Translations under genes and position numbers: made by a program
Assembly: GCF_000264455.2 (NCBI RefSeq)
Contig: NC_017956.1
Span: 2,772,001-2,836,000, forward strand
Direction of reading: 5' to 3'
DNA: 64,000 nucleotides
Origin: Tistrella mobilis KA081020-065
GTDB lineage: Bacteria > Pseudomonadota > Alphaproteobacteria > Tistrellales > Tistrellaceae
Notes under the pieces: generated by a model
Seen by the model: only the letters and a program-made list of their open reading frames with translations
Databases searched by the model: none
What the model was told of the DNA's origin: nothing
In this document: positions 2,116-14,147 of the stretch, one piece after another
Layout: every line of letters starts with the position of its first letter
Position numbering within the stretch: position 1 is the first letter of the stretch

Positions 2116-3219
2116 TCAACGATGGGCACCGCGACCCAGATACCGCTCCAGCCACTGGCTGTAGCGCGAGATCGCGAAGCAGAAGACGAAGTAGACCAGC
2201 GCCGCGAAGACATAGGCCTCGGCGAAATAGGTCCGCCAGGGCGCGTCGTTCAGCGCCGCACGGGTCGCCAGCATCAGGTCGAAGATGCCGATGATGACCA
2301 CCAGCGAGGTGTCCTTCAGCGTCGACAGGAACGAATTCACGGTCGACGGAATGCTGATCTTCAGCGCCTGCGGCAGAATGATCAGCCGCATCTTCTGCCA
2401 GTAGCCGAGGCCGAGCGCGTCGGCCGCTTCGTACTGCCCCTTGGGGATGGCCTGCAGGCCGCCGCGCACCACCTCGGCCAGATAGGCGGCCGCGAACATG
2501 ATGATTGCGATCTGGGCCCGCAGCAGCTTGTTGATGTTGAGCCCTTCCGGCAGGAAGAGCGGGATCATGACCGAGGCCATGAACAGCAGCGTCACCAGCG
2601 GCACGCCGCGGATCAGCTCGATATAGGTCACCGACAGTGCCTTGATGATCGGCAGGTTCGACCGGCGCCCCAGCGCCAGCAGCACCGCGATCGGGAAGGC
2701 GATGCCGCAGCCGAAGACCGACAGCACCAGGGTGATCATCAGGCCGCCCCAGAGCCGGGTCTCGACCAGCGGCAGGCCGAAGACACCACCCCACATCAGC
2801 AGGCAGATCAGCAGCAGCGCCGCGATCCACACATAGACCAGCTTCCGGCTCCAGAACTTCCGGTAGCCGCTGGCGGCGACCAGGGTCACGAAGATCAGGA
2901 TGGAGGCGAGCGGCCGCCACTGTTCCTCGTAAGGATAGGTGCCGAACAGGATCAGGCGGTACTTCTCGCGGATGAAGGCCCAGCAGGCCCCTTCCGCCGC
3001 CTTGCAGGCCTCGGGCGCAGCACGGCCCCAGACCGCATCGACGAAGGCCCAGTCGATCAGCCCGGGCAGCCACGAAATCAGCGCCCAGGCGATGGCCACG
3101 GTGATCAGCGCGTTGTACCAGGTGTTGAACAGATTGCCGCGGATCCAGGCGATGGGTCCCACCGTCGCCGCGGGCGGCCGTTCTGCGGCCGTCTTTTCCG
3201 GTATGGTCTGAGCGGTCAT
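2116..3219 (-). CDS. aapM: amino-acid ABC transporter permease AapM
   Basis: One of two membrane subunits of the Aap general L-amino-acid importer. The 367-residue protein has several hydrophobic segments and, in the C-terminal half, the permease coupling motif around [20 protein letters not shown] (the EAA loop that docks on AapP). The length matches AapM of rhizobia (about 380), much longer than the simple HisM/GlnP type because of a large N-terminal membrane and loop region. It starts four bases after the aapQ stop, so the two permeases are probably translationally coupled. Confidence 0.92.
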
Positions 3220-3223
3220 CGGC

Positions 3224-4429
3224 CTAGCGCTCCACCAGCGCGATGCGCTTGTTGTACCAGTTCATGAACGCCGAGATCGACAGGCTGACCGTCAGGTATG
3301 CCAGCATGATCAGGGCGATGTTCTCGATGGCCTGACCGGTCTGGTTCAGGGTCGTATTGGCCACCGACACGATGTCCGGATAGCCGATCGCGACCGCGAG
3401 CGAGCTGTTCTTGGTCAGGTTCAGGAACTGGCTGGTGGTCGGCGGCACGATCACGCGCAGGGCCTGCGGCAGGATGATCAGCCGCATGGTGACGCCGGGC
3501 TTGAGGCCCAGTGCGGCAGCCGCTTCCCACTGGCCCTTGCCGACCGCCTGAATGCCCGACCGTACGGTTTCGGCGATGAAGGCAGCGGTGTAGAGCGTGA
3601 GGCCCAGCGTCAGCGCGGCAAATTCCGGCGAGACCGAGACGCCGCCCTGGAAGTTGAAGCCGCGCAATTCCGGCATGTCGAGCGCAAGCGGCGCGCCCAT
3701 CACCGCCCAGACCGCGACCGGCAGGCCGATCAGCAGGGCGAGCGAGGGGATCAGCGTCTTCGGCCGGTCGCCGGTCGCCGCCTGGATCCTGCGGGCACGG
3801 GCCAGCAGGAAGCGCACGGCCAGGATCGCGACGATGAGCGCGATCAGCGCCCCCCACCAGGCAGGATGGTCGGCCGGGGCCGGCATCTTGAAGCCGCGAT
3901 TGCTGAGGAACACGCCCTCGATCGGCTGCAGCGCCTGGCGTGGCGCCGGCAGAACCTCGGTGATCAGCCCGTACCAGAAGAACAGCTGCAGCAGCACCGG
4001 GATGTTGCGCAACGTCTCGACATAGATCGTCGCCAGCTTGGCGAGCAGCCAGTTGCTCGACAGGCGGGCGACACCGATCACCACGCCGATCAGCATCGCG
4101 AATACGATGCCGATCAGCGACACCTTCAGCGTGTTGACCACGCCCACCCAAAGGGCACGGGCATAGGTGTCGGTCGCATTGTACGGAATGAGAGACTCGC
4201 CGATCGCAAACCCGGCCTCGCGGCTCAGATAGTCGAAGCCGGTCTGGATGTTGCGGGTGGCGAGATTGTGCAGGGTGTTGCCCACCAGATACCAGCCGAT
4301 GGCAATCACGATTGCCATGGCGATGATCTGGAACAACACCGCACGCACGCCAGCGTCGTTCAGCATCGAACGACGGGGCGGCGTGCCGTCCGGGGCGGAG
4401 GTGCCCGGACGGCGGCTGGTGTCGGTCAT
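3224..4429 (-). CDS. aapQ: amino-acid ABC transporter permease AapQ
   Basis: Second membrane subunit of the Aap importer. The 401 residues include a proline-rich cytoplasmic N-terminus, a first membrane span (AVLFQIIAMAIVIAIGWYLV), a large periplasmic or loop region and the coupling motif ETVRSGIQAVGKGQWEAAAA near the C-terminus. The start at 4429 (MTDTSRRPGT) is preferred over a frame beginning 21 codons earlier because a GAAGGGC ribosome-binding site lies just upstream and the extra residues look non-conserved. AapQ is normally about 400 residues, in agreement. It lies between aapJ and aapM. Confidence 0.92.
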   Translation of the reverse strand: MTDTSRRPGTSAPDGTPPRRSMLNDAGVRAVLFQIIAMAIVIAIGWYLVGNTLHNLATRNIQTGFDYLSREAGFAIGESLIPYNATDTYARALWVGVVNTLKVSLIGIVFAMLIGVVIGVARLSSNWLLAKLATIYVETLRNIPVLLQLFFWYGLITEVLPAPRQALQPIEGVFLSNRGFKMPAPADHPAWWGALIALIVAILAVRFLLARARRIQAATGDRPKTLIPSLALLIGLPVAVWAVMGAPLALDMPELRGFNFQGGVSVSPEFAALTLGLTLYTAAFIAETVRSGIQAVGKGQWEAAAALGLKPGVTMRLIILPQALRVIVPPTTSQFLNLTKNSSLAVAIGYPDIVSVANTTLNQTGQAIENIALIMLAYLTVSLSISAFMNWYNKRIALVER

Positions 4430-4520
4430 CGGCTCTGGAAGCCCTTCGCTCGTCGCGGATGCGTTACGGCGGCCGGGGTCCACCGGTGGCACATCACGAA
4501 CAGCAGCCCGAGACGGCCGA

Positions 4521-4550
4521 GGGGGCCGTGATCAGCCGATCACGCCCCCC
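4521..4550 (-). other. intercistronic stem-loop between aapJ and aapQ
   Basis: Arms GGGGGCCGTGATC and GATCACGCCCCCC enclose a 4-base loop and pair almost fully, with one bulged C. The 177-base gap between aapJ and aapQ is otherwise empty. No U-run follows on the minus strand, so it is better read as an mRNA-stabilising or attenuating hairpin that keeps the binding protein more abundant than the membrane parts, as known for other binding-protein operons. Confidence 0.6.
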
Positions 4551-4606
4551 CTCAGACCTGTTGGGTCGCCGGCCCTCGGCGGTCGCCGGCGCCACCATGC
4601 AGGCGA

Positions 4607-5638
4607 TCAGCGGATCGGGTCGGCGTACAGCACGCCGCCGTCGCTCCACTGCGCGTTCAGGCCGCGCTCCAGCTTCAGCGGGCTTTCGGGGCCGACATTG
4701 CGCGAGAAGATCTCGCCGTAATTGCCGACCTGTTTGATCGGGCGATAGGCCCACTCGTCGTCCAGGCCCAGCGTCTGGCCCATGCCGGGCGAGGTGCCGA
4801 GGATGCGGCGCACGACCGGGTTCTCGGACGAGGACTTCATCTCGTCGACATTCTTCGACGAGATGCCGTATTCCTCGGCCTCGATCAGGGCGTTGCGGAC
4901 CCACTTCACGATGGTGAAGTACTCGTCGTCGCCACGACGCACCGCCGGTGCCAGGGGCTCCTTCGAGATCGCCTCGGGCAGGATCACGTGATCTTCCGGG
5001 TTCTGCGCGTTCACCGACCGCAGCGCCGCAAGGCCCGAGATGTCGGTGGTGTAGGCATCGCACCGGCCCGAGAAATAAGCCTTGTAGGATTCCTCGAAGC
5101 TCTCGAACACCACCGGCTGCAGCTTCATGCCATGGGCACGGAAGTAGTCGGTGAGGTTGAGCTCGGTGGTGGTGCCGGACTGAACGCAGACGGTGGCGCC
5201 GTCCAGTTCCTTGGCGCTGCTGACGCCCGCGGCCTTGGTGATCAGGAAGCCCTGGCCGTCGTAGAACCAGGTACCGACGAAGAACAGGCCGAGCGAGGCG
5301 TCGCGGGTCAGCGTGTTGGTGCTGTTGCGCGACAGGAGATCGATTTCACCCGACTGCAGCGCGGTGAAGCGCGCCTGGGCCGACAGCGGCACGAACTGGA
5401 CCTTTTCCGCGTCGCCGAGGATGGTGGCCGCGACCGCACGGCAGAAGTCGGCGTCCATGCCGCTCCAGCGGCCGGTGCTGTCCGGCGCCGAGAAGCCCGG
5501 CAGACCGGTGTTCACGCCGCAGCGCAGCGTGCCGTTCTTCTTGATCGCGTCCAGCGTCGCGCCGGCATGGGCGGGCGCGCCAAGCGCCGCGACGGCGACG
5601 GTAGCCGCAAGCGCGGCCACGAAGGTCTTGATCGACAT
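4607..5638 (-). CDS. aapJ: periplasmic amino-acid-binding protein AapJ
   Basis: The periplasmic solute-binding protein of the Aap importer. The 343 residues start with a Sec signal peptide (MSIKTFVAALAATVAVAALG, cleaved after ...APAHA). Family hallmarks follow: LRCGVNTGLPGFSAPD, the FCRAVAATI segment, and SGEIDLLSRNSTNT in the ligand cleft. It is first in the operon and is separated from aapQ by a stem-loop, as expected for a highly expressed binding protein. Met at 5659 (MRGFAIHMSIK) is an alternative start that also gives a workable signal peptide. Substrates are inferred from the family: broad polar L-amino acids. Confidence 0.92.
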   Translation of the reverse strand: MSIKTFVAALAATVAVAALGAPAHAGATLDAIKKNGTLRCGVNTGLPGFSAPDSTGRWSGMDADFCRAVAATILGDAEKVQFVPLSAQARFTALQSGEIDLLSRNSTNTLTRDASLGLFFVGTWFYDGQGFLITKAAGVSSAKELDGATVCVQSGTTTELNLTDYFRAHGMKLQPVVFESFEESYKAYFSGRCDAYTTDISGLAALRSVNAQNPEDHVILPEAISKEPLAPAVRRGDDEYFTIVKWVRNALIEAEEYGISSKNVDEMKSSSENPVVRRILGTSPGMGQTLGLDDEWAYRPIKQVGNYGEIFSRNVGPESPLKLERGLNAQWSDGGVLYADPIR

Positions 5639-5990
5639 GTGTATCGCAAAGCCCCTCATCTGCAGGTCGATGCCGCCTGATCGGCGGACTCCGGACGCAC
5701 ACATGCAGCCCCCAGGGCCCGCGATGCAAAACGTCCGTCCGACATGCGTCGTTTCGAGCGGAGCACGGTTGTCCGGCGGCCCTCCCGCCGGATCCGCGGA
5801 GCGCGCCCCCCCGGACGCGTTCCTGAAAGCTCCACATCTTCCCCTGTTCGTTGGTAGCACACCGGTCAATCGTCATGCAAGCGTGCGCCCTGAGGCATCG
5901 AGCCGGGTTGTCAGCGGCGGCTGCGCGCGTTGAAATGCGCCCGACGGCGCAAGGCCGCGCCGAATGCACGGATCGAGGAGAGCCGGAACC
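5639..5990. promoter_or_regulatory. divergent intergenic region between aapJ and metC
   Basis: About 350 bases without a gene; it must hold promoters for the aap operon on the minus strand and metC on the plus strand. A short inverted repeat TCCGGCGG-n5-CCGCCGGA sits at 5772-5792. I could not pick a convincing -35/-10 pair for either side, and no riboswitch fold is evident. Confidence 0.4.
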
Positions 5991-7223
5991 ATGTCCGACG
6001 AGACGCGTCCCGACGCGACAGGGGCACACAGGAACGAAGATCCCCACGGGATCGACACCCGGATCGTTCACGTCGGGCGGGATCCCTTCGCCAATCACGG
6101 CATCGTCAACCCGCCGGTGCATCACGCCTCGACCGTGCTGTTTCCCACACTCGACGCGCTGGTGAAGGCCGCGGCCGACCCCACCCGCGGGGTCTATTAC
6201 GGGCGCTACGGCACGCCGATCACCCATGCGCTGGAAGATGCCTATGCCGAGCTGGCGGGCGGTGCGCGCGGCATCGCGCTCGCCTCGGGCAAGACGGCGA
6301 TCCTGGCGATGCTTACCGCCTTTACCGGTGCCGGCGATCATGTGGTCGTGCTCGACAACGTCTACGAACCGACCCGGGCGCTGGCGGACCAGTTCCTCGG
6401 CCGCTACGGCGTCGAGGTCACCTATGTCGACCCGATGGCGGGGGCTGGGGTTGCCGATCATTTCCGGCCGAACACGAAGCTGCTGATGCTGGAAGCGCCG
6501 GGTTCGCTCACCTTCGAAGTGGCCGATCTGCCGGCGATGATCGCCGCGGCCAAGGCCGCGGGCGTGCGCACCGCGCTCGACAATTCCTGGGCGACGCCGC
6601 TCTATCTGAAGCCGCTCGCCATGGGGGTCGACGTGGTGATGGAGGCCGGAACCAAATATCTGGTCGGCCATTCCGACGCCATGATGGGCGTTCTGTCGGC
6701 CACGGAAGAGGCCTTTCCGGCGCTGCGCCGGGCGGCCAGCGAGATCGGCGCCCCTCCGGGACCGGACGACTGCTATCTGGCGCTGCGCGGGCTGCGCACC
6801 CTGTCGGTGCGCATGGCGCGGCACCGCGAAACCGGCCTGGCCCTTGCCCGACACCTGGCCGGGCACGACATGGTGCGTCAGGTGCTGCATCCCGCCCTGC
6901 CCGGCTGCCCGGGCCACGAGGCCTTCCTGCGCGACTTCCAGGGGTCGAGCGGCCTGTTCGCGGTGGAGCTTCAGCCGGGCAGCCGCGACCGGATCGCGGC
7001 GATGGTCGACCACATGGCCCTGTTCAAGATGGGCTTTTCCTGGGGCGGCTATGAAAGCCTGATCCTGCCGGCCGACCCGCGCCGGGCCCGCACCGCCACC
7101 CGCGACCGCTGGACCGGCCGCGGACCACTGCTGCGCATCCATGCCGGGCTGGAAGACCCGGCCGATCTGATCGCCGATCTGGACGCGGGCCTCGCCCGCT
7201 ATGCCGCCGCCGCCGACGCCTGA
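5991..7223 (+). CDS. metC: cystathionine beta-lyase (Cys/Met PLP-dependent enzyme)
   Basis: A cytoplasmic fold-type-I PLP enzyme of the Cys/Met metabolism family, expected to cleave cystathionine to homocysteine, pyruvate and ammonia. Visible are the YYGRYGTP segment that contacts the phosphate of the neighbouring subunit, the LASGKTAI loop, Asp197 in ALDNSWATP (pyridine nitrogen) and Lys222 in GTKYLVGHSD (Schiff base). The C-terminal FSWGGYESL motif is typical of beta-lyases. The start at 5991 follows GAGGAG; a Met nine codons upstream lacks this. At 410 residues it is close to the family norm of about 395. Other family members such as gamma-lyase are less likely but not excluded. Confidence 0.87.
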   Translation: MSDETRPDATGAHRNEDPHGIDTRIVHVGRDPFANHGIVNPPVHHASTVLFPTLDALVKAAADPTRGVYYGRYGTPITHALEDAYAELAGGARGIALASGKTAILAMLTAFTGAGDHVVVLDNVYEPTRALADQFLGRYGVEVTYVDPMAGAGVADHFRPNTKLLMLEAPGSLTFEVADLPAMIAAAKAAGVRTALDNSWATPLYLKPLAMGVDVVMEAGTKYLVGHSDAMMGVLSATEEAFPALRRAASEIGAPPGPDDCYLALRGLRTLSVRMARHRETGLALARHLAGHDMVRQVLHPALPGCPGHEAFLRDFQGSSGLFAVELQPGSRDRIAAMVDHMALFKMGFSWGGYESLILPADPRRARTATRDRWTGRGPLLRIHAGLEDPADLIADLDAGLARYAAAADA

Positions 7224-7266
7224 CGAACGGGCGGCGGCAGGCGGCCCCCGAGACGAGGGAGACGTC

Positions 7267-8544
7267 ATGACCGCCGCCATTCCCATCGCCCCGGCTGTTC
7301 TTGCGCTCGGCCTTGGCCTGAGCCTCAGCCTGGCAGGCCCCGCAGCTGCAACCGATCCGGCACCCGGAACCCGGCTCAGGGTCGATGCCGACCGCCTGCC
7401 GGCCCCGGGCAATGCCCCGAGCCCGGCCAATTCGCCGCAGACGGTCGACCGGCCCGCGGCCGCCACCCTGCGCGTTCCCGACGGCTTCCGTGCCACGCTC
7501 TTCGCCGAGGGGCTGGCGCATCCCCGGGTCATGGCGGTTGCCGCCAATGGCGATGTCCTGCTGGCCGAAAGCCGGGCCGGCAAGATCACCCTGCTGCGCG
7601 ACGCGGATGGCGACGGCCGGGCGGAGGTCCGCGAAACCCTGATCGACGGCCTGGCCCGCCCGCATGGCATCGGCTTCCGCGAGGGCACGATCTGGGTATC
7701 GGACACCAACGGGGTCTGGCGCTGGCCCTATACGCCCGGCGACACCCGCATCACCGCCGAACCCGAAGCCGTGACCCCGCCCGACGCTCTGGGCAGCGCC
7801 GGTGGTCACTGGACCCGCGGTCTTCAACTCGATCCCGAAGGGGAAGGGTTCTGGGTCTCCATCGGCTCCCGCGGGAATGTGGGGGTGGAGCCCGAGCCCC
7901 GGGCGACCATCCGCCGCTTCGACGGGCCGGGCGATGGCGGCCACAGCTTCGCGACCGGGCTGCGCAATCCGGTGGGGATGGCGATCCACCCCAAGACCGG
8001 CGCGCTGTGGACCGTGGTCAACGAGCGCGACGGGCTGGGCGACGATCTGGTGCCCGACTATCTGACCCGGGTCCGGGAGGGCGGCTTCTACGGCTGGCCC
8101 TATGGCTGGGCCGGCGCCGGCGGCGACCCGGTGGTCCAGCCCGGGCTGGAGGGGCAGGACGAAGGCCGGCTGGCCCGGCTGATCACCCCCGATTCGCGTT
8201 TTCAGGCGCATTCTGCACCGATCGGACTGACGTTCTACGATGGCACAATGTTCCCGGAACGATACAGCGGCGGTGCCTTTGTCGCCCTGCGCGGGTCCTG
8301 GAATGCGGCAGAGCCCCGCGGCTATGTCGTGGCCTTCGTGCCCTTCAATGCCGATGGCGCACCGGCGGATGGCGGGGTCTACGAGGTTTTCGCTTCAGGT
8401 TTCCGCCTCGATGACGGCGGGCGTGGGGAGCCTGCGCAGGTATGGGGCAGGCCGGCCGGAGTGGCGGTAGACCGCGCCGGCGCCCTGCTGATCGCCGACG
8501 ATACCGGCGGCACGCTTTGGCGTGTTGTCACAACGGGAAACTGA
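7267..8544 (+). CDS. exported PQQ-dependent sugar dehydrogenase (sorbosone dehydrogenase family)
   Basis: A 425-residue exported protein with a signal peptide (ALGLGLSLSLAGPAAA, cut near residue 28). The rest fits the six-bladed beta-propeller of soluble glucose/sorbosone dehydrogenases: repeated blades such as NGDVLLAESRAGKITLL, ARPHGIGFREGTIWVSDTNG, and THE ligand-site-like NPVGMAIHPKTGALWTVVNE with the conserved NERD following. These enzymes oxidise sugars or aldoses in the periplasm with PQQ. The start at 7267 is preceded by CGAGGGAGACGTC. No PQQ biosynthesis genes are in the window. The actual substrate is unknown, and some family members lack demonstrated activity. Confidence 0.82.
   Translation: MTAAIPIAPAVLALGLGLSLSLAGPAAATDPAPGTRLRVDADRLPAPGNAPSPANSPQTVDRPAAATLRVPDGFRATLFAEGLAHPRVMAVAANGDVLLAESRAGKITLLRDADGDGRAEVRETLIDGLARPHGIGFREGTIWVSDTNGVWRWPYTPGDTRITAEPEAVTPPDALGSAGGHWTRGLQLDPEGEGFWVSIGSRGNVGVEPEPRATIRRFDGPGDGGHSFATGLRNPVGMAIHPKTGALWTVVNERDGLGDDLVPDYLTRVREGGFYGWPYGWAGAGGDPVVQPGLEGQDEGRLARLITPDSRFQAHSAPIGLTFYDGTMFPERYSGGAFVALRGSWNAAEPRGYVVAFVPFNADGAPADGGVYEVFASGFRLDDGGRGEPAQVWGRPAGVAVDRAGALLIADDTGGTLWRVVTTGN
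8524..8534. promoter_or_regulatory. candidate upstream activator dyad for the sigma-54 promoter
   Basis: A perfect dyad GTTGT-C-ACAAC lies at the end of the dehydrogenase gene, about 60 bases upstream of the -24 element of the sigma-54 promoter. That distance suits an enhancer site for a bacterial enhancer-binding protein, and one is encoded next door. Only position and symmetry support this; it is a single short dyad. Confidence 0.3.
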
Positions 8545-8585
8545 CCGGATTTTCAAGCTGATTGCGCAGTGATGTGCCGGCGGCA

Positions 8586-8600
8586 TGGCACGGAGCTTGC
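8586..8600 (+). promoter_or_regulatory. sigma-54 (-24/-12) promoter
   Basis: TGGCACG at 8586-8592, four bases, then TTGC at 8597-8600: the full RpoN consensus with GG at -24 and GC at -12 in correct spacing. It lies 56 bases upstream of the start codon at 8657 on the same strand. The encoded sigma-54-dependent activator at 10414-11883 is the natural candidate to drive it. Confidence 0.85.
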
Positions 8601-8656
8601 CAGAAGAGAGGCAACCGAACCGGATGGTTCGCCCCTTTTCTCGAGCGAGACCCCCC

Positions 8657-10402
8657 ATGAGCGCGCTGATCGGCATTCTGAACGGCAAACCGGTCGGTGA
8701 CCGTTTGCATTCTGCACTGGACAAGCTGGACCCGGCACGCATCGTGCGGCGTGACACCCGTATGTTCGCGACCCACGGTGCCGCCGCTGGTCTGGCGGCG
8801 ATCGGGCCCGAGATTCCCGAACACGTCGCCGCACGCCAGGATGTCATCCGCCCCGATGCGCGGCTGATCCGGCTGGGCCAGACGACGCTGGGTATCGTGG
8901 GCCCGGCACCCGCGATCTGCCGGCTTGGCCTGGGCGACGGCGCGGTGGAGCCGACCTCCGCCGATCTGCGCCGCAACATCGCCCTGGCGGCGCTGCTGGC
9001 CGATCTGGACCGGCCCGGCCAGGATACGGAGCTGGCACTGCGCCGGCTGATGGACCGCACCGGCGGCGACATGTCCTTCACCCTGCTGATCGACGAGGAT
9101 CCGCGCCGGATGTTCGTCGCCCGCGGCGAGACGGCGCTGTGCTTTGCGGCAGGCGATCACACCGGCCTGGTCGCCAGCGACGAACGCCTGCTGAGCGGAG
9201 CGGATCCGGTGTCGGTGGGGCTCCGGCCCGGCGATGTCGCCACCCTCTCGGCCGACCGGGTGCGGGTCGCCGATGCCTGCGGCCGGGTGATCGCCCGCCG
9301 CATCGGCCCGGCCGCCCGGCCGGCCGATGTGCCGCCGATGCCGGCTGCCGGCCGCGATCTTACCGCACATGATCTGGATCATCTGGCCCATGCGGTGCGC
9401 CTGGGGGCCGGGCTGACCGCGCCGGATGCGGCACCGCTGCCGGTGTCGGCTGCGGCCGGCATCCATGGCCGCATCGCCTTCAGCGCAGCCGCCCCGCTGA
9501 TGCCGGCCGCAGCCGCAGCCGCGGATCTCTGGCGGCGCTGCTATGGGCTGGAGGTGATGGTCCGGCCGATCGAAGACGGCGCCCGCCCCTATCTGCCGGT
9601 CGATCTTGTGATCATCCTGCCGGACCCGGCCGATCTGGCCGGCGGGACGGATCTGCCGCGCCGGCTGCGCCAGGGCGGCGCGCGATCGGTGACCATGCTG
9701 GTGGCCGATGCCGGTGCCGGCCCCGCCGCTTCCGGGCTGGATGCCGTCTGGCGCCTGCCGCTGCCGCGCGAATACGGCGTGGCCCCCACGCTTTCGGCCC
9801 TCGGCCTCATCTCGGGTCTGGCCGCCATCGGCTCGCGCATCGCCGCCCTCGGCAATGGCGCCCCCCGGCCGCGGCCCGGGCTCCATGATGCGGGCATCGC
9901 CCCCCGGGTCGTCGCCCGCGTGCTGAACGCGACCGCCGACCGCCTCGCCGCGCCCCAGCCGGCGGCCTTTGCCGAGGCGGCGACGGCCCAGATCGACCGG
10001 ATCGCCGCGCGCATGATCGCGAGCGGTCAGCGCCGGCTGGATCTGGAGCTGGCGGGGCCGGTGCTCGACCCGCGTGTCTCGGGCGGGATGGCCGAGCTTG
10101 CCTGCACGCTCTTCGCCGAAATCGCGCAGGTGATCTGCCTGCCGGCGCAGGACCATGATCCGTTCGGCCACCCGTCATCGGGGGCGGCACCTGCGCGCGC
10201 CCTGCCATCGGCGCCACGCCTCGATCCCACCACGGCGATCGGCGCGGCAGCCGGCAGCGAGAACGCCACCACGGCGGCCGGGCTTGCCGGTGCGATGATC
10301 CTGGCCGCCGCAGGGGCGATGCGCACTGCCCATGCCTTCGCCCGGGCCAGTGGCGCCACGCTCGGCCGTCCTCGCTGCCTCACCGGTCTGCGCGGCAGCT
10401 GA
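8657..10402 (+). CDS. GlmS-like protein (GATase-II/SIS/SIS layout) without catalytic residues
   Basis: A 581-residue protein that reads as a degenerate glutamine-fructose-6-phosphate aminotransferase along its whole length. Start MSALIGILNG replaces MCGIVGILG, so the nucleophile Cys is gone. ATHG (38-41), GQDTEL (121-126), MFVARGETAL and LVASDERLL follow the glutaminase domain. In the first SIS domain, PREYGVAPTLSA (370-381) matches the PEIGVASTKAF motif, but the sugar-phosphate SQSGET loop is missing. FGHP (503-506) stands for KHGP and GRPRCLTG (570-577) for the QPRNLAKS tail, without the isomerase Lys. The second SIS domain is shortened. I infer a regulatory or binding protein, not a transaminase. 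Transcription should be sigma-54 dependent. Start 8657 is set by the GlmS alignment; the ribosome-binding site is poor. Confidence 0.75.
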   Translation: MSALIGILNGKPVGDRLHSALDKLDPARIVRRDTRMFATHGAAAGLAAIGPEIPEHVAARQDVIRPDARLIRLGQTTLGIVGPAPAICRLGLGDGAVEPTSADLRRNIALAALLADLDRPGQDTELALRRLMDRTGGDMSFTLLIDEDPRRMFVARGETALCFAAGDHTGLVASDERLLSGADPVSVGLRPGDVATLSADRVRVADACGRVIARRIGPAARPADVPPMPAAGRDLTAHDLDHLAHAVRLGAGLTAPDAAPLPVSAAAGIHGRIAFSAAAPLMPAAAAAADLWRRCYGLEVMVRPIEDGARPYLPVDLVIILPDPADLAGGTDLPRRLRQGGARSVTMLVADAGAGPAASGLDAVWRLPLPREYGVAPTLSALGLISGLAAIGSRIAALGNGAPRPRPGLHDAGIAPRVVARVLNATADRLAAPQPAAFAEAATAQIDRIAARMIASGQRRLDLELAGPVLDPRVSGGMAELACTLFAEIAQVICLPAQDHDPFGHPSSGAAPARALPSAPRLDPTTAIGAAAGSENATTAAGLAGAMILAAAGAMRTAHAFARASGATLGRPRCLTGLRGS

Positions 10403-10430
10403 CGCCGACCGGATCAGGGATCGGTCGGCG
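10403..10430. terminator. hairpin between convergent GlmS-like and sigma-54 regulator genes
   Basis: CGCCGACC-g-GATC and GATC-GGTCGGCG form a stem with one bulge and a 3-base loop, lying exactly between the convergent stops and covering the last codons of the regulator. No clear U-run follows on either side, so termination strength is uncertain. Confidence 0.5.
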
Positions 10431-11883
10431 CCTCCGACCAGGCCTGACGCTTGCGATAGATGGTGGAGGCGCTGATGCCGAGCAGGGCGGCGGCCCGGGG
10501 CACATTGCCACCACAAAGCTCGATCGCGCGTTCGATCGCCATCCGCTCCACCTGCCAGAGCGGCCGGATCTCACCCTCTGCACCATAGATGCCGGGAGTG
10601 TCCGGATCGCGCCCGCCGCCGACCTCGTCCACCTCCCCATCCGCGACCGGTTCGAAATCCAGCTCGGGCGGCGGCGCGCCGGTCGTCGCGGGCTTGAGCA
10701 ATCGCGCCTCTGCCTCGCGCAGCTGGGCGGGCAGCATGTCCAGGGTCAGGACCTCCCCGTCATTCAGCACCACCGCGCCGTGAAGCACGTTGTAGAGCTG
10801 ACGGATATTGCCGGGCCAGCGATAGGCCGCGAGCGCCGCCTCGGCTGCAGCGTCGATCCTGCGGAAGCCCTTGCCTTCCAGGGACGCCAGATCGTCCAGT
10901 AGATGGCGGGCGATCAGACGCACATCGTCGCCCCGCTGGCGCAGCGGCGGCAGGTGGATCGGCACCACATGCAGACGGTAGTACAGGTCCTCGCGGAAGC
11001 GGCCGGCCTCCACCTCCACCAGCGGGTCGCGATTGGTGGCGGACACGATGCGGATGTCGACCCGCTCGGTCACGCCCGAGCCCACCTTCTGGAAGGCGCC
11101 GGTCTGCAGGAAACGCAGCAGCTTGCTCTGCAGCGCCAGATCCATCTCGCAGACCTCGTCCAGGAACAGCGTGCCGCCATGGGCGCGGGTCGCCGCACCG
11201 TCGCGGTCGGTATGGGCGCCGGTGAAGGCGCCGCGGACATGGCCGAAGATCTCGCTTTCCATCAGATCGCGCGGGATGGCGGCGCAGTTGAGTGCGACGA
11301 AGGGTCCGCGGGCGCGCGGGCTGCGGGCATGCAGCGCCTCGGCCGCCAGCTCCTTGCCCGTGCCGCTCTCGCCCGTGATGAAGACCGAAGCCCGGCTTTG
11401 TGCCGCCCCTTCGATGATCCGATAGATGCCCTGCATGACCAGCGACCGGCCGATCATGCCGCAATAGGCTTCACGCTCGCCGATGCGGTCGACCAGCCGG
11501 GTGAGCGTGCCCAGCGCCAGTGCGTTGCGCACCGTCACCACCAGCCGTTCGGGCGGGAAAGGCTTCACCAGGAAATCGTGGGCGCCGGCGCGCATCGCCT
11601 CGACGGCCACATTCACCGAGCCATGCGCCGTCACCACCACCACATCGCAGCCGCCCCGGCGGCGCAGATCGGCCAGAATGTCGAGCCCGTTGGCGTCGGG
11701 CAGGCTGAGATCCAGCAGCACCAGCGCCGGGGGCGTCGCCGCAATCCGTTCGAAGGCGGCTGCCGCCGTCCCCACGGCCACGGCAGGAATGCCGGCGCCA
11801 CGGAGCTGTTCCGCGTAAAGGCGGGCCAGAAGGGCGTCGTCCTCGATGATCAGAACTTCGGATGCACTCTCGTCCGCCACCAT
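10414..11883 (-). CDS. sigma-54-dependent response regulator (LuxO/NtrC family)
   Basis: A 489-residue enhancer-binding protein with three domains. The receiver (about 8-125) has Glu14/Asp15, phospho-acceptor Asp58 in LLDLS, Thr85 and Lys107. The AAA+ domain (about 145-375) has Walker A GESGTGKE (171-178), the sigma-54 contact loop GAFTGA (218-223) and LFLDEV. A Fis-type helix-turn-helix closes the protein ([20 protein letters not shown]). The sequence after GAFTGA, with DRDGAA and [10 protein letters not shown], is closest to the LuxO subgroup. No histidine kinase is encoded nearby, so its phosphodonor is elsewhere. It converges on the GlmS-like gene that carries a sigma-54 promoter, its most plausible target. 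Confidence 0.9.
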
Positions 11884-12027
11884 ACCGCCACGTCACCATA
11901 CTGCCTGATGCGGTGACCATGGGTCCCCCCGGCCACCCGCAAAACAAGGCTAGCAGAAGACCGGGGCGCGGTCAGCGTCCACGACGACACCCGCATCAGG
12001 TGTAGGGCGCGCCAATCGGCGCCGGTG

Positions 12028-12765
12028 TCAGTTACCCGGCGTATCGAGCACCGGCTCCCGCGCGGTCGCAGCTTCCAGGAGCCCGGGATCCGCGGCAGCC
12101 GACAGCTGATCGAGCAGAGCACGCGCCGGCGCATATCCGCGCGCAACGGCGCGGCGGCATCGGGCCACCGCTTCCACCATGTCCGGCGGATCCCCCACGA
12201 GCGCACGCAGCGCCAGGGCGTGATCGGCGGCCCCGTCGCCGGCACGCGCCGCGCGCAGCAGGCGGGACCGCGCAGCAGCGGCATCGCCCCCGGCGGCACG
12301 GCCGTCGAGCTGCATCAGGGCAAGGCCGGTATCGGCGGCGACGATGCCGGCACGCGCCGCCTGTTCGTACAGCATCGCCGCCCGCACCGGATCGGCCGGC
12401 AGAGCCGGGCCTGCGCCCTGGTCCAGCAGGCGCGCCAGGTTGAAGGCGGCACGCGCATCCCCGGCATCGGCGGCGCGGCCGTACCAGGAGGCAGCCGCCG
12501 CCGGATCTGCTTCCCCGCCCTGCCCCTGCTCTGCCATCACCCCCAGATAAAAGGCGGCGCGGGCGTCACCAGCCTCTGCCAGCCTGCCGAACAGGTTACG
12601 GGCGGTGGCATAGTCGCCGGTCTCCCAGGCATGGGCAGCGGTGGCGAAGCCCTGCGGCGGCGTCCAGGCCTGGGCACCGACCGGCATCATGGCCGCCAGA
12701 CCGATCACGACCGCCCTGCGGAGTGCCGTCTGCACCCCACGCCCCTTCACCCTGGCCAGCCTCAT
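12028..12765 (-). CDS. exported Sel1-repeat (TPR-like) protein
   Basis: A 245-residue protein with an N-terminal signal peptide (AVVIGLAAMMPVGAQA) followed by about five Sel1-like repeats: ARAAFYLGVMAEQG, DPAAAASWYGRAADAG, ARAAFNLARLLDQG, DPVRAAMLYEQAARAG. Such alpha-solenoids mediate protein-protein contacts, often in envelope processes or signalling. The start at 12765 is preferred because it gives a proper signal peptide and follows GGGGGTGAC; an open frame extends 40 codons further upstream. It is transcribed in the same direction as the O-antigen ligase behind it, and a role in surface polysaccharide is possible but unproven. Confidence 0.78.
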   Translation of the reverse strand: MRLARVKGRGVQTALRRAVVIGLAAMMPVGAQAWTPPQGFATAAHAWETGDYATARNLFGRLAEAGDARAAFYLGVMAEQGQGGEADPAAAASWYGRAADAGDARAAFNLARLLDQGAGPALPADPVRAAMLYEQAARAGIVAADTGLALMQLDGRAAGGDAAAARSRLLRAARAGDGAADHALALRALVGDPPDMVEAVARCRRAVARGYAPARALLDQLSAAADPGLLEAATAREPVLDTPGN

Positions 12766-12869
12766 GTCACCCCCGATGCGCACCCCGCCCGGTGCCAATA
12801 AGTACTCTCCCGCGCAGCTAATATTCCGCAAGCGGCCGAGGGGATGCAAGCCGGAGCAGGTACCGTCGG

Positions 12870-14147
12870 TCAACCTGCGCGGCACGGCCGCGGGAGCGCC
12901 ACCCGGCTCACCATCAATCCGACCAGCGACCAGAAAACCACACCATTCCAGTTGTTGAAGAAGCTGCCATGCGGAACGACCGGCCAGAGAATCAACAGGA
13001 TGCCGAGCCCGGCCCCTACGGCCACCGGATCCATGCGCTGCGGCAGGAATGCTGCGACAAAACCACCGACCAATGCCAGGAAGATAACCAGGCCGATAAC
13101 ACCGTGCTCCGCAAAGAATTCAATGTAAGCGTTATGCGGATGAGTCGAACAAAACTCCAGATATTCCGAGTAGTCGGTGCCCCGCAGTCTGATGTTAGGG
13201 GATCGGATTTCCGGGCAGACATCCCGAAAATTCTTTCCTCCGGCGCCAACCGCAGGCGAGAGTTCGCCGACCTCGACGCCGGACTGCCAGAGCAGGCCAT
13301 AGGACGTCGTCGACAGACGTGACAGCGTCCCCAGGGTCGAGCCGATCTGACGGTCGAAACTTGCGGGAGACAGGATGTAGGCCACCACCGCGCCAACAAT
13401 TGCAATCAGCAACCCATACCGCATGAAACGACGGAGACCTGGCACGGGCACGATCAGAGCCATAATCAACAGACCAAGGCCTGCCAGCAGAAAGGCACTC
13501 CGCTCGCCTGACAGGAAGATTGCGAGCAGCACCAGAAACAGCCCGACACCGACGGGAGCCAGCCGTCGCATCGATCCTGCAGCTGCCCAGGCCAGGGCGA
13601 AACCCAGGCATGGGAACATCGTCTTGGTCAGAAAAATGCCGACCTTGCGATCATCGAATGGGCCGGTCAGCCGCAGGGGATGCGAATAGCTTTGGACAAT
13701 CCTGGTGACCCAGTACCATTCCATCAGCGCCCAGACGGCACTGAACAAAACGATGGCCAGCAAAACCGCCACGTAGCGGTCGCGCCATTTGGGTTCCGTC
13801 AGCAGCCAGAAACCGAGAGCCGCTGCGAGCATCGGAAATCTGATGAAAGTCCCGGCCCGGCTGAATGCATCAGACACGCTGGCCAGCGCAAAGGGCGCCG
13901 TAGCCAGCATGAACACCCATAGAACAAGCGCCAGACGAAACCACCAAGCCCGAAGCGCAACCGTGTCCCGATTGACGGCGCCATGGATGAGAAACAAAAG
14001 CGCAACCAAAGAGCCACCGACATCAGTCACCCCTGGCCCCAGTATCATCAAAATGGGCAAGATCATTGCAATCATGCGTCCCACGGCTCTAAGACGATCC
14101 TGCGCCTCCGCGCCCGCGGAACTCACATTATTTTGGGACAAGGTCAT
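12870..14147 (-). CDS. O-antigen ligase/polymerase family membrane protein
   Basis: A polytopic inner-membrane protein of about 425 residues with around ten hydrophobic segments. In the C-terminal half a long periplasmic loop holds the hallmark THPHNAYIEFFAEHGVIGL (H-x-x-N-x-x-L/I-E of the Wzy_C/WaaL family). These proteins join O-antigen or other glycans to lipid A core or polymerise repeat units at the periplasmic face. The gene is visibly lower in GC than its neighbours (28 of 60 bases are G/C at 13081-13140), as often seen for surface-polysaccharide genes gained by transfer. The start is uncertain: ATG 14147, or TTG four codons upstream; neither has a well-spaced ribosome-binding site. 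Confidence 0.85.
   Translation of the reverse strand: MTLSQNNVSSAGAEAQDRLRAVGRMIAMILPILMILGPGVTDVGGSLVALLFLIHGAVNRDTVALRAWWFRLALVLWVFMLATAPFALASVSDAFSRAGTFIRFPMLAAALGFWLLTEPKWRDRYVAVLLAIVLFSAVWALMEWYWVTRIVQSYSHPLRLTGPFDDRKVGIFLTKTMFPCLGFALAWAAAGSMRRLAPVGVGLFLVLLAIFLSGERSAFLLAGLGLLIMALIVPVPGLRRFMRYGLLIAIVGAVVAYILSPASFDRQIGSTLGTLSRLSTTSYGLLWQSGVEVGELSPAVGAGGKNFRDVCPEIRSPNIRLRGTDYSEYLEFCSTHPHNAYIEFFAEHGVIGLVIFLALVGGFVAAFLPQRMDPVAVGAGLGILLILWPVVPHGSFFNNWNGVVFWSLVGLMVSRVALPRPCRAG

What the first reader, a model, noticed from the sequence alone, without database searches (positions are those of the whole stretch)
8657..10402. A GlmS-shaped protein that has lost every catalytic residue
The protein is collinear with glutamine-fructose-6-phosphate aminotransferase from end to end: the ATHG, DTE and LVASD landmarks of the glutaminase domain, an EIGVASTKAF-like segment (EYGVAPTLSA), a KHGP-like FGHP and a QPRNLAKS-like GRPRCLTG tail. 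Yet the N-terminal nucleophile Cys is Ser-Ala, the SQSGET phosphate loop is absent and the isomerase Lys is gone. I infer a repurposed sensor or regulatory protein, for example binding GlmS, glucosamine-6-phosphate or a hexosamine ligand. This differs from ordinary GlmS paralogues, which keep the Cys.
Basis: partly seen in the sequence, partly recalled or inferred. Interest (0 to 1): 0.75.

Follow-up and report, generated by a model that had tools for sequence, protein, structure and literature searches.

The report
Dead GlmS look-alike behind sigma-54 promoter
This gene encodes a diverged, probably non-catalytic copy of GlmS, the enzyme that makes the first amino sugar for the bacterial cell wall; it is kept by selection in one small bacterial genus and appears to be switched on by the alternative sigma factor sigma-54, so it is probably a regulator rather than an enzyme.

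Summary
The 581-aa protein at 8657-10402 (+) is a very divergent GlmS paralogue. Homology is solid at residues 1-25 and 105-222 (half of the glutaminase domain), moderate for the first SIS domain (268-400) and the C-terminal tail (543-581), and not detectable at 26-104 or in the second SIS domain. The nucleophile Cys is Ser, the SQSGET loop is PDPADL, and the isomerase residues are replaced. The gene is intact and under purifying selection (omega about 0.2, against 0.03 for true glmS). It was found only in the three held genomes of this genus, which have one intact glmS each. New here: an exact sigma-54 promoter (TGGCACG-N4-TTGC, 8586-8600) in the 112-bp leader, invariant in all three genomes while its spacer changes; the convergent neighbour is a sigma-54 response regulator. 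Best reading: a sigma-54-induced GlmS pseudoenzyme, most plausibly acting by protein contact, perhaps with GlmS. Hexosamine-phosphate sensing is unlikely because the phosphate loop is lost. The step "acts on GlmS" is untested.

The parts
8657..10402 (+). GlmS-like pseudoenzyme CDS, 581 aa; ATG at 8657 (the upstream ATG at 8585 is out of frame in the mates because of a 1-nt indel)
8657..8731 (+). aa 1-25, GlmS N-terminal strand and helix; nucleophile Cys replaced by Ser2
   Evidence: hhalign to GlmS 1-25, E 5e-5, 0/60 shuffles; Z 8.3
8969..9322 (+). aa 105-222, C-terminal lobe of the glutaminase domain (contains LVASD and GDVATLSADRVRV)
   Evidence: hhalign E 5e-13; Z 13.6
9458..9856 (+). aa 268-400, degenerate first SIS domain
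   Evidence: Z 5.1, 0/400 shuffles, 1/400 real segments; collinear hhalign
9620..9637 (+). PDPADL in place of the SQSGET phosphate loop
9770..9790 (+). EYGVAPT, counterpart of EIGVAST; Ser401 of GlmS is Pro here, and Lys403 (next residue after this motif) is Leu
10139..10261 (+). aa 495-535, fast-evolving segment at the place of the KHGP loop
   Evidence: omega 0.45
10283..10399 (+). aa 543-581, degenerate GlmS tail GRPRCLTGLRGS (QPRNLAKSVTVE in GlmS)
   Evidence: Z 3.8, 0/400; omega 0.10 for aa 535-581
8545..8656 (+). conserved 5' leader between the sorbosone-dehydrogenase-like gene and the CDS
   Evidence: 6.8% substitutions between G000 and G001 against dS 0.41 in the CDS
8586..8600 (+). 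sigma-54 (-24/-12) promoter-like site TGGCACG-GAGC-TTGC
   Evidence: exact match; 9 in the 6.5-Mb genome against 2 for the reversed pattern; kept in mates with spacer GGGT
8616..8631 (+). hairpin CGAACC-GGAT-GGTTCG near the inferred mRNA 5' end
   Evidence: folds in all three genomes, with a G-U wobble and a changed loop in G001
10414..11883 (-). convergent neighbour: sigma-54 enhancer-binding response regulator (LuxO/NtrC-like); candidate activator
   Evidence: Pfam Sigma54_activat 3.5e-65, Response_reg 5e-24, HTH_8; best NCBIfam LuxO below its cut-off

Best explanation
The gene is an old, highly diverged duplicate of glmS whose product can no longer make glucosamine-6-phosphate. It keeps part of the GlmS scaffold: the N-terminal strand and helix, half of the glutaminase domain, the first SIS domain and the C-terminal tail. 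It is transcribed from a sigma-54 promoter in its own leader, possibly activated by the adjacent NtrC/LuxO-type response regulator, so it is made under particular conditions. Most likely it then acts by protein-protein contact, the leading candidate being hetero-oligomerisation with, or competition against, the intact GlmS, so as to tune amino-sugar supply for the envelope. Shown: homology by region, residue losses, purifying selection, promoter consensus and its conservation, restriction to this genus in the genomes searched. Inferred: loss of catalysis (about 0.85), sigma-54 control (about 0.75), action by protein contact rather than catalysis (about 0.6), GlmS as the partner (about 0.35). 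Activation by the adjacent regulator is only a candidate.
For: Region-by-region homology. Cys to Ser, SQSGET to PDPADL, Glu488 to Cys, Lys485 to Glu, isomerase Lys603 absent. omega 0.196 (0.145-0.269) and 0.154 (0.088-0.239) in two comparisons; the three orthologues have no frameshift or stop. The most constrained regions are recognisable ones: aa 110-225 (0.12) and 535-581 (0.10). One intact glmS elsewhere in the genome, and one over the cut-off in each mate. Exact sigma-54 site on the sense strand, 56 nt before the ATG, invariant in three genomes although the 4-nt spacer changed; 9 sites in the genome against 2 for the reversed control, and several others precede transporter or catabolic genes. 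RpoN is encoded. The adjacent gene is a sigma-54 activator.
Against: No direct evidence of any interaction with GlmS. The second SIS domain is not recognisable, so contacts that GlmS makes through it may be lost. The fold could not be predicted independently: the single-sequence model is useless and its structure search finds nothing; the model that resembles E. coli GlmS had GlmS rows in its alignment and mean pLDDT 40. Only three genomes carry the gene.
Confidence: 0.45

Rival explanations
1. A GlmS-derived protein with a different job, unrelated to GlmS: a scaffold or sensor for another ligand or partner in the nutrient or envelope response set by sigma-54 and perhaps the neighbouring regulator.
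For: Sugar-phosphate residues are lost; the SIS2 half has diverged beyond recognition; several other exact sigma-54 sites in the genome precede transporter and catabolic genes, not envelope genes.
Against: The retained regions are GlmS scaffold segments; no ligand, partner or linked pathway gene was found.
Confidence: 0.3
2. A neofunctionalised enzyme: after Met removal, Ser2 becomes an N-terminal nucleophile (Ntn-hydrolase style) acting on a substrate other than glutamine.
For: Ser at the nucleophile position in all three genomes; residues 1-20 fully identical; R35, T39 and D103 might replace R73, T76 and D123.
Against: The region holding the oxyanion Asn-Gly and the substrate residues (26-104) is unrecognisable; the omega there is not unusually low; Cys-to-Ser replacements in class II amidotransferases are generally near-inactive (from knowledge, not tested here).
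Confidence: 0.15
3. A decaying duplicate on its way to a pseudogene.
For: omega is about six times that of glmS; a hypervariable segment at aa 495-535.
Against: omega is far below 1 (upper bound 0.27); no frameshift or stop in three genomes; the leader and promoter are more conserved than synonymous sites.
Confidence: 0.06
4. Chance or compositional resemblance; not a GlmS homologue.
For: Pfam finds nothing; the unbiased fold prediction fails.
Against: E 5e-13 for aa 105-222; 0/400 shuffles and 0/400 real segments for three collinear regions.
Confidence: 0.02

Closest known systems
GlmS, glutamine-fructose-6-phosphate aminotransferase (TIGR01135; E. coli 2J6H)
   Same: Length, order of recognisable regions, N-terminal strand and helix, glutaminase C-lobe, first SIS domain, C-terminal tail.
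   Different: 25 bits against a cut-off of 418; no Cys, no SQSGET, no EGALKLKE, no KHGP, no tail Lys; about 18-24% identity; the 26-104 and SIS2 regions are unrecognisable.
PDX1.2, non-catalytic paralogue of the vitamin B6 enzyme PDX1 in eudicots (PMC6829848)
   Same: Clade-restricted, conserved pseudoenzyme paralogue that regulates a biosynthetic pathway; working analogy only.
   Different: Unrelated family; PDX1.2 has demonstrated expression and regulation, this protein has no experiment.
Protein regulators of GlmS: EIIA-Ntr in Salmonella (PMC5024086) and GlmR/YvcK in Bacillus subtilis (PMC6171935)
   Same: Would likewise tune GlmS post-translationally; EIIA-Ntr is encoded in the rpoN operon.
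   Different: Neither is a GlmS homologue; direct binding and inhibition are shown for EIIA-Ntr, nothing is shown here.
QseF (GlrR)/sigma-54 control of glmY in E. coli (PMC6075780, abstract)
   Same: A sigma-54 response regulator controls an amino-sugar regulator.
   Different: There the output is an sRNA; here it is a GlmS-like protein, and the activator is only a candidate.

Membership tests
GlmS (TIGR01135 equivalog) | Score above the curated cut-off, 418 bits | tested here: not met
   25.3 bits
GlmS (TIGR01135 equivalog) | N-terminal nucleophile Cys | tested here: not met
   Ser in all three genomes
GlmS (TIGR01135 equivalog) | SQSGET phosphate loop | tested here: not met
   PDPADL, PEPAET in G001
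GlmS (TIGR01135 equivalog) | Isomerase residues Glu488, His504, Lys603 | tested here: not met
   Cys, variable, absent; the SIS2 alignment is weak
GlmS (TIGR01135 equivalog) | Common descent with GlmS | tested here: met
   hhalign E 3e-11; four regions beat shuffles
SIS domain (PF01380) | Two SIS domains | tested here: inconclusive
   No Pfam hit; SIS1 supported by profile alignment, SIS2 not
Pseudoenzyme paralogue of GlmS | Catalytic residues lost while the gene is under purifying selection, with an active-type paralogue present | tested here: met
Pseudoenzyme paralogue of GlmS | No catalysis; acts on the active paralogue or pathway | not testable with these tools
   needs biochemistry
Sigma-54-dependent gene | -24/-12 TGGCACG-N4-TTGC on the sense strand upstream, conserved; RpoN present | tested here: met
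Sigma-54-dependent gene | Transcription depends on RpoN and an enhancer-binding protein | not testable with these tools
   needs an rpoN or activator deletion

The most novel reading that the evidence does not exclude
A GlmS pseudoenzyme, induced through sigma-54, that joins or competes with GlmS subunits to set the flow of fructose-6-phosphate into cell-envelope amino sugars: post-translational control of GlmS by its own dead paralogue, for which my limited paper searches found no precedent.
Probability: 0.3. Interest if true: 0.75.

Novelty: new variant of a known kind. Interest (0 to 1): 0.52.

Why it matters
GlmS is the committed step of amino-sugar supply for the cell envelope. In different bacteria it is regulated by a ribozyme, by small RNAs with RapZ, by EIIA-Ntr and by GlmR. 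A conserved, sigma-54-linked dead paralogue would be a further and different control device, and a clear bacterial case of a pseudoenzyme kept after gene duplication. It is directly testable with one deletion and one co-purification.

Tried and rejected
Pfam, PADLOC and phmmer against PDB found nothing. Relatives outside the genus: 385 class genomes, 398 phylum genomes, a genome-contig scan, viral contigs and plasmids gave none; the non-genus hits whose loci were fetched and read keep the GlmS landmarks (a few lack one exact landmark string or are cut short, and hits without a fetched locus were not read). AlphaFold without an alignment failed and its fold search found no match at E <= 0.001; genus-mate sequences could not be used there because the tool admits only loci from other searches. 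The GlmS-aided model is not counted as independent evidence. The longer ORF from 8585 was rejected because of a 1-nt indel in the mates. The antisense ORF 8528-10171 was rejected as a shadow (codon-position pattern). No Rfam match in 3000-13000. No sigma-70-like promoter in 8400-10600. No exact sigma-54 match in the locus of the true glmS (L005).

Full report
What is there. The + strand ORF 8657-10402 codes for 581 aa. The genome has 6.5 Mb in 5 contigs; the window lies on the 3.9-Mb contig. Two further genomes of the same genus carry an orthologue at 86% and 96% identity; in G001 the sorbosone-dehydrogenase-like gene before it and the convergent response regulator after it are also kept. The start is ATG 8657: the protein from MSALIGI onward is shared, and a 1-nt indel in the mates puts the upstream extension out of frame.

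Is it GlmS-like? NCBIfam glmS hits at E = 5e-6 over aa 111-215, collinear with model 129-233, but at 25 bits against a cut-off of 418. Pfam finds nothing. A profile of the three proteins against 17 GlmS proteins from other genomes gives E = 3e-11 across aa 109-381 / GlmS 126-402. Testing pieces separately, with shuffled sequences and with segments of other proteins encoded in the window as controls, shows where the resemblance is real: aa 1-25 and 105-222 beyond doubt, SIS1 (268-400) and the tail (543-581) clearly, aa 26-104 and the second SIS domain not at all. Region limits were chosen after seeing alignments, so the moderate Z values (5.1, 3.8) should be read with that in mind; local hhalign on SIS1 alone or the tail alone did not stand out from shuffles, so their support comes from collinear global alignment.

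Catalytic residues. On the collinear alignment Cys is Ser; SQSGET is PDPADL; Ser401 and Lys403 are Pro and Leu; Glu481, Lys485, Glu488 are Gly, Glu, Cys; Lys603 is missing. Arg, Thr and Asp of the glutaminase site may have counterparts (R35, T39, D103), but that stretch cannot be aligned with confidence. Synthase activity is very unlikely; glutaminase activity is unlikely.

Not a pseudogene. omega is 0.196 (bootstrap 0.145-0.269) between the two species and 0.154 within the species, with differences at codon positions 50/36/166. True glmS has 0.033, the neighbours 0.05-0.12, in the same species comparison. One intact glmS lies elsewhere, and the mates have one each over the cut-off.

Distribution. 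In 385 genomes of the class and 398 of the phylum (overlapping samples) no other relative was found; the hits that were read are ordinary GlmS. The order is represented by only three genomes, so 'genus-restricted' really means 'not seen outside this small order'.

Promoter. Not in the finding: the 112-bp leader 8545-8656 has only 6.8% substitutions between species whose synonymous distance in the gene is 0.41. It contains TGGCACG-GAGC-TTGC at 8586-8600, an exact sigma-54 consensus, the only exact one in the window and one of nine in the genome, against two for the reversed pattern. In both mates the -24 and -12 elements are unchanged while the spacer is GGGT. RpoN is encoded. Several of the other exact sites are followed by genes such as a dicarboxylate symporter, substrate-binding proteins and a hydantoinase, which are plausible sigma-54 targets (family knowledge). 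A small hairpin (8616-8631) just after the expected transcript start is kept in all three genomes, once through a G-U pair. The convergent neighbour 10414-11883 is a sigma-54-activating response regulator of LuxO/NtrC type. Adjacency alone makes it a candidate activator.

Mechanism. The evidence points to a protein that is made under sigma-54 control, keeps part of the GlmS scaffold and has lost the chemistry. The most economical role is contact with a partner; GlmS itself is the natural first candidate, by analogy with regulatory pseudoenzyme paralogues such as PDX1.2 in vitamin B6 synthesis (PMC6829848). Protein control of GlmS exists in other forms (EIIA-Ntr, PMC5024086; GlmR, PMC6171935), and in E. 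coli the sigma-54 activator QseF drives the amino-sugar regulator glmY (PMC6075780, abstract). Loss of the phosphate loop argues against a fructose-6-P or GlcN-6-P sensor. None of this proves the partner.

Structure. AlphaFold from the single sequence failed (pLDDT 36; no fold match). With four GlmS rows pLDDT was 40, with the best parts near 115-215 and 270-350, and E. coli GlmS was the top structural match. Because GlmS sequences were supplied, this is consistency, not proof.

Verdict.

Noticed in passing
8586-8600 (+): Exact sigma-54 promoter consensus, kept in two other genomes of the genus while its spacer changed.
   Followed up: yes
8545-8656 (+): Leader far more conserved than synonymous sites, including a block (about 8542-8574) identical in all three genomes that could be an activator site; no activator motif was identified.
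   Followed up: partly
8616-8631 (+): Terminator-like hairpin followed by CCCCTTTTCT, kept in three genomes; could end the upstream operon or act as an attenuator.
   Followed up: partly
10414-11883 (-): LuxO/NtrC-like sigma-54 response regulator; best NCBIfam model is LuxO at 576 bits, below its cut-off of 800.
   Followed up: partly
7201-8544 (+): Glucose/sorbosone dehydrogenase-like protein overlapping the end of a cystathionine beta-lyase gene (5964-7223); this gene pair precedes the finding.
   Followed up: no
L064-L067, L069-L072 (G000): Eight other exact sigma-54 sites in the genome, several before transporters or catabolic genes (Bmp and NMT1 substrate-binding proteins, hydantoinase, SDF symporter).
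   Followed up: partly
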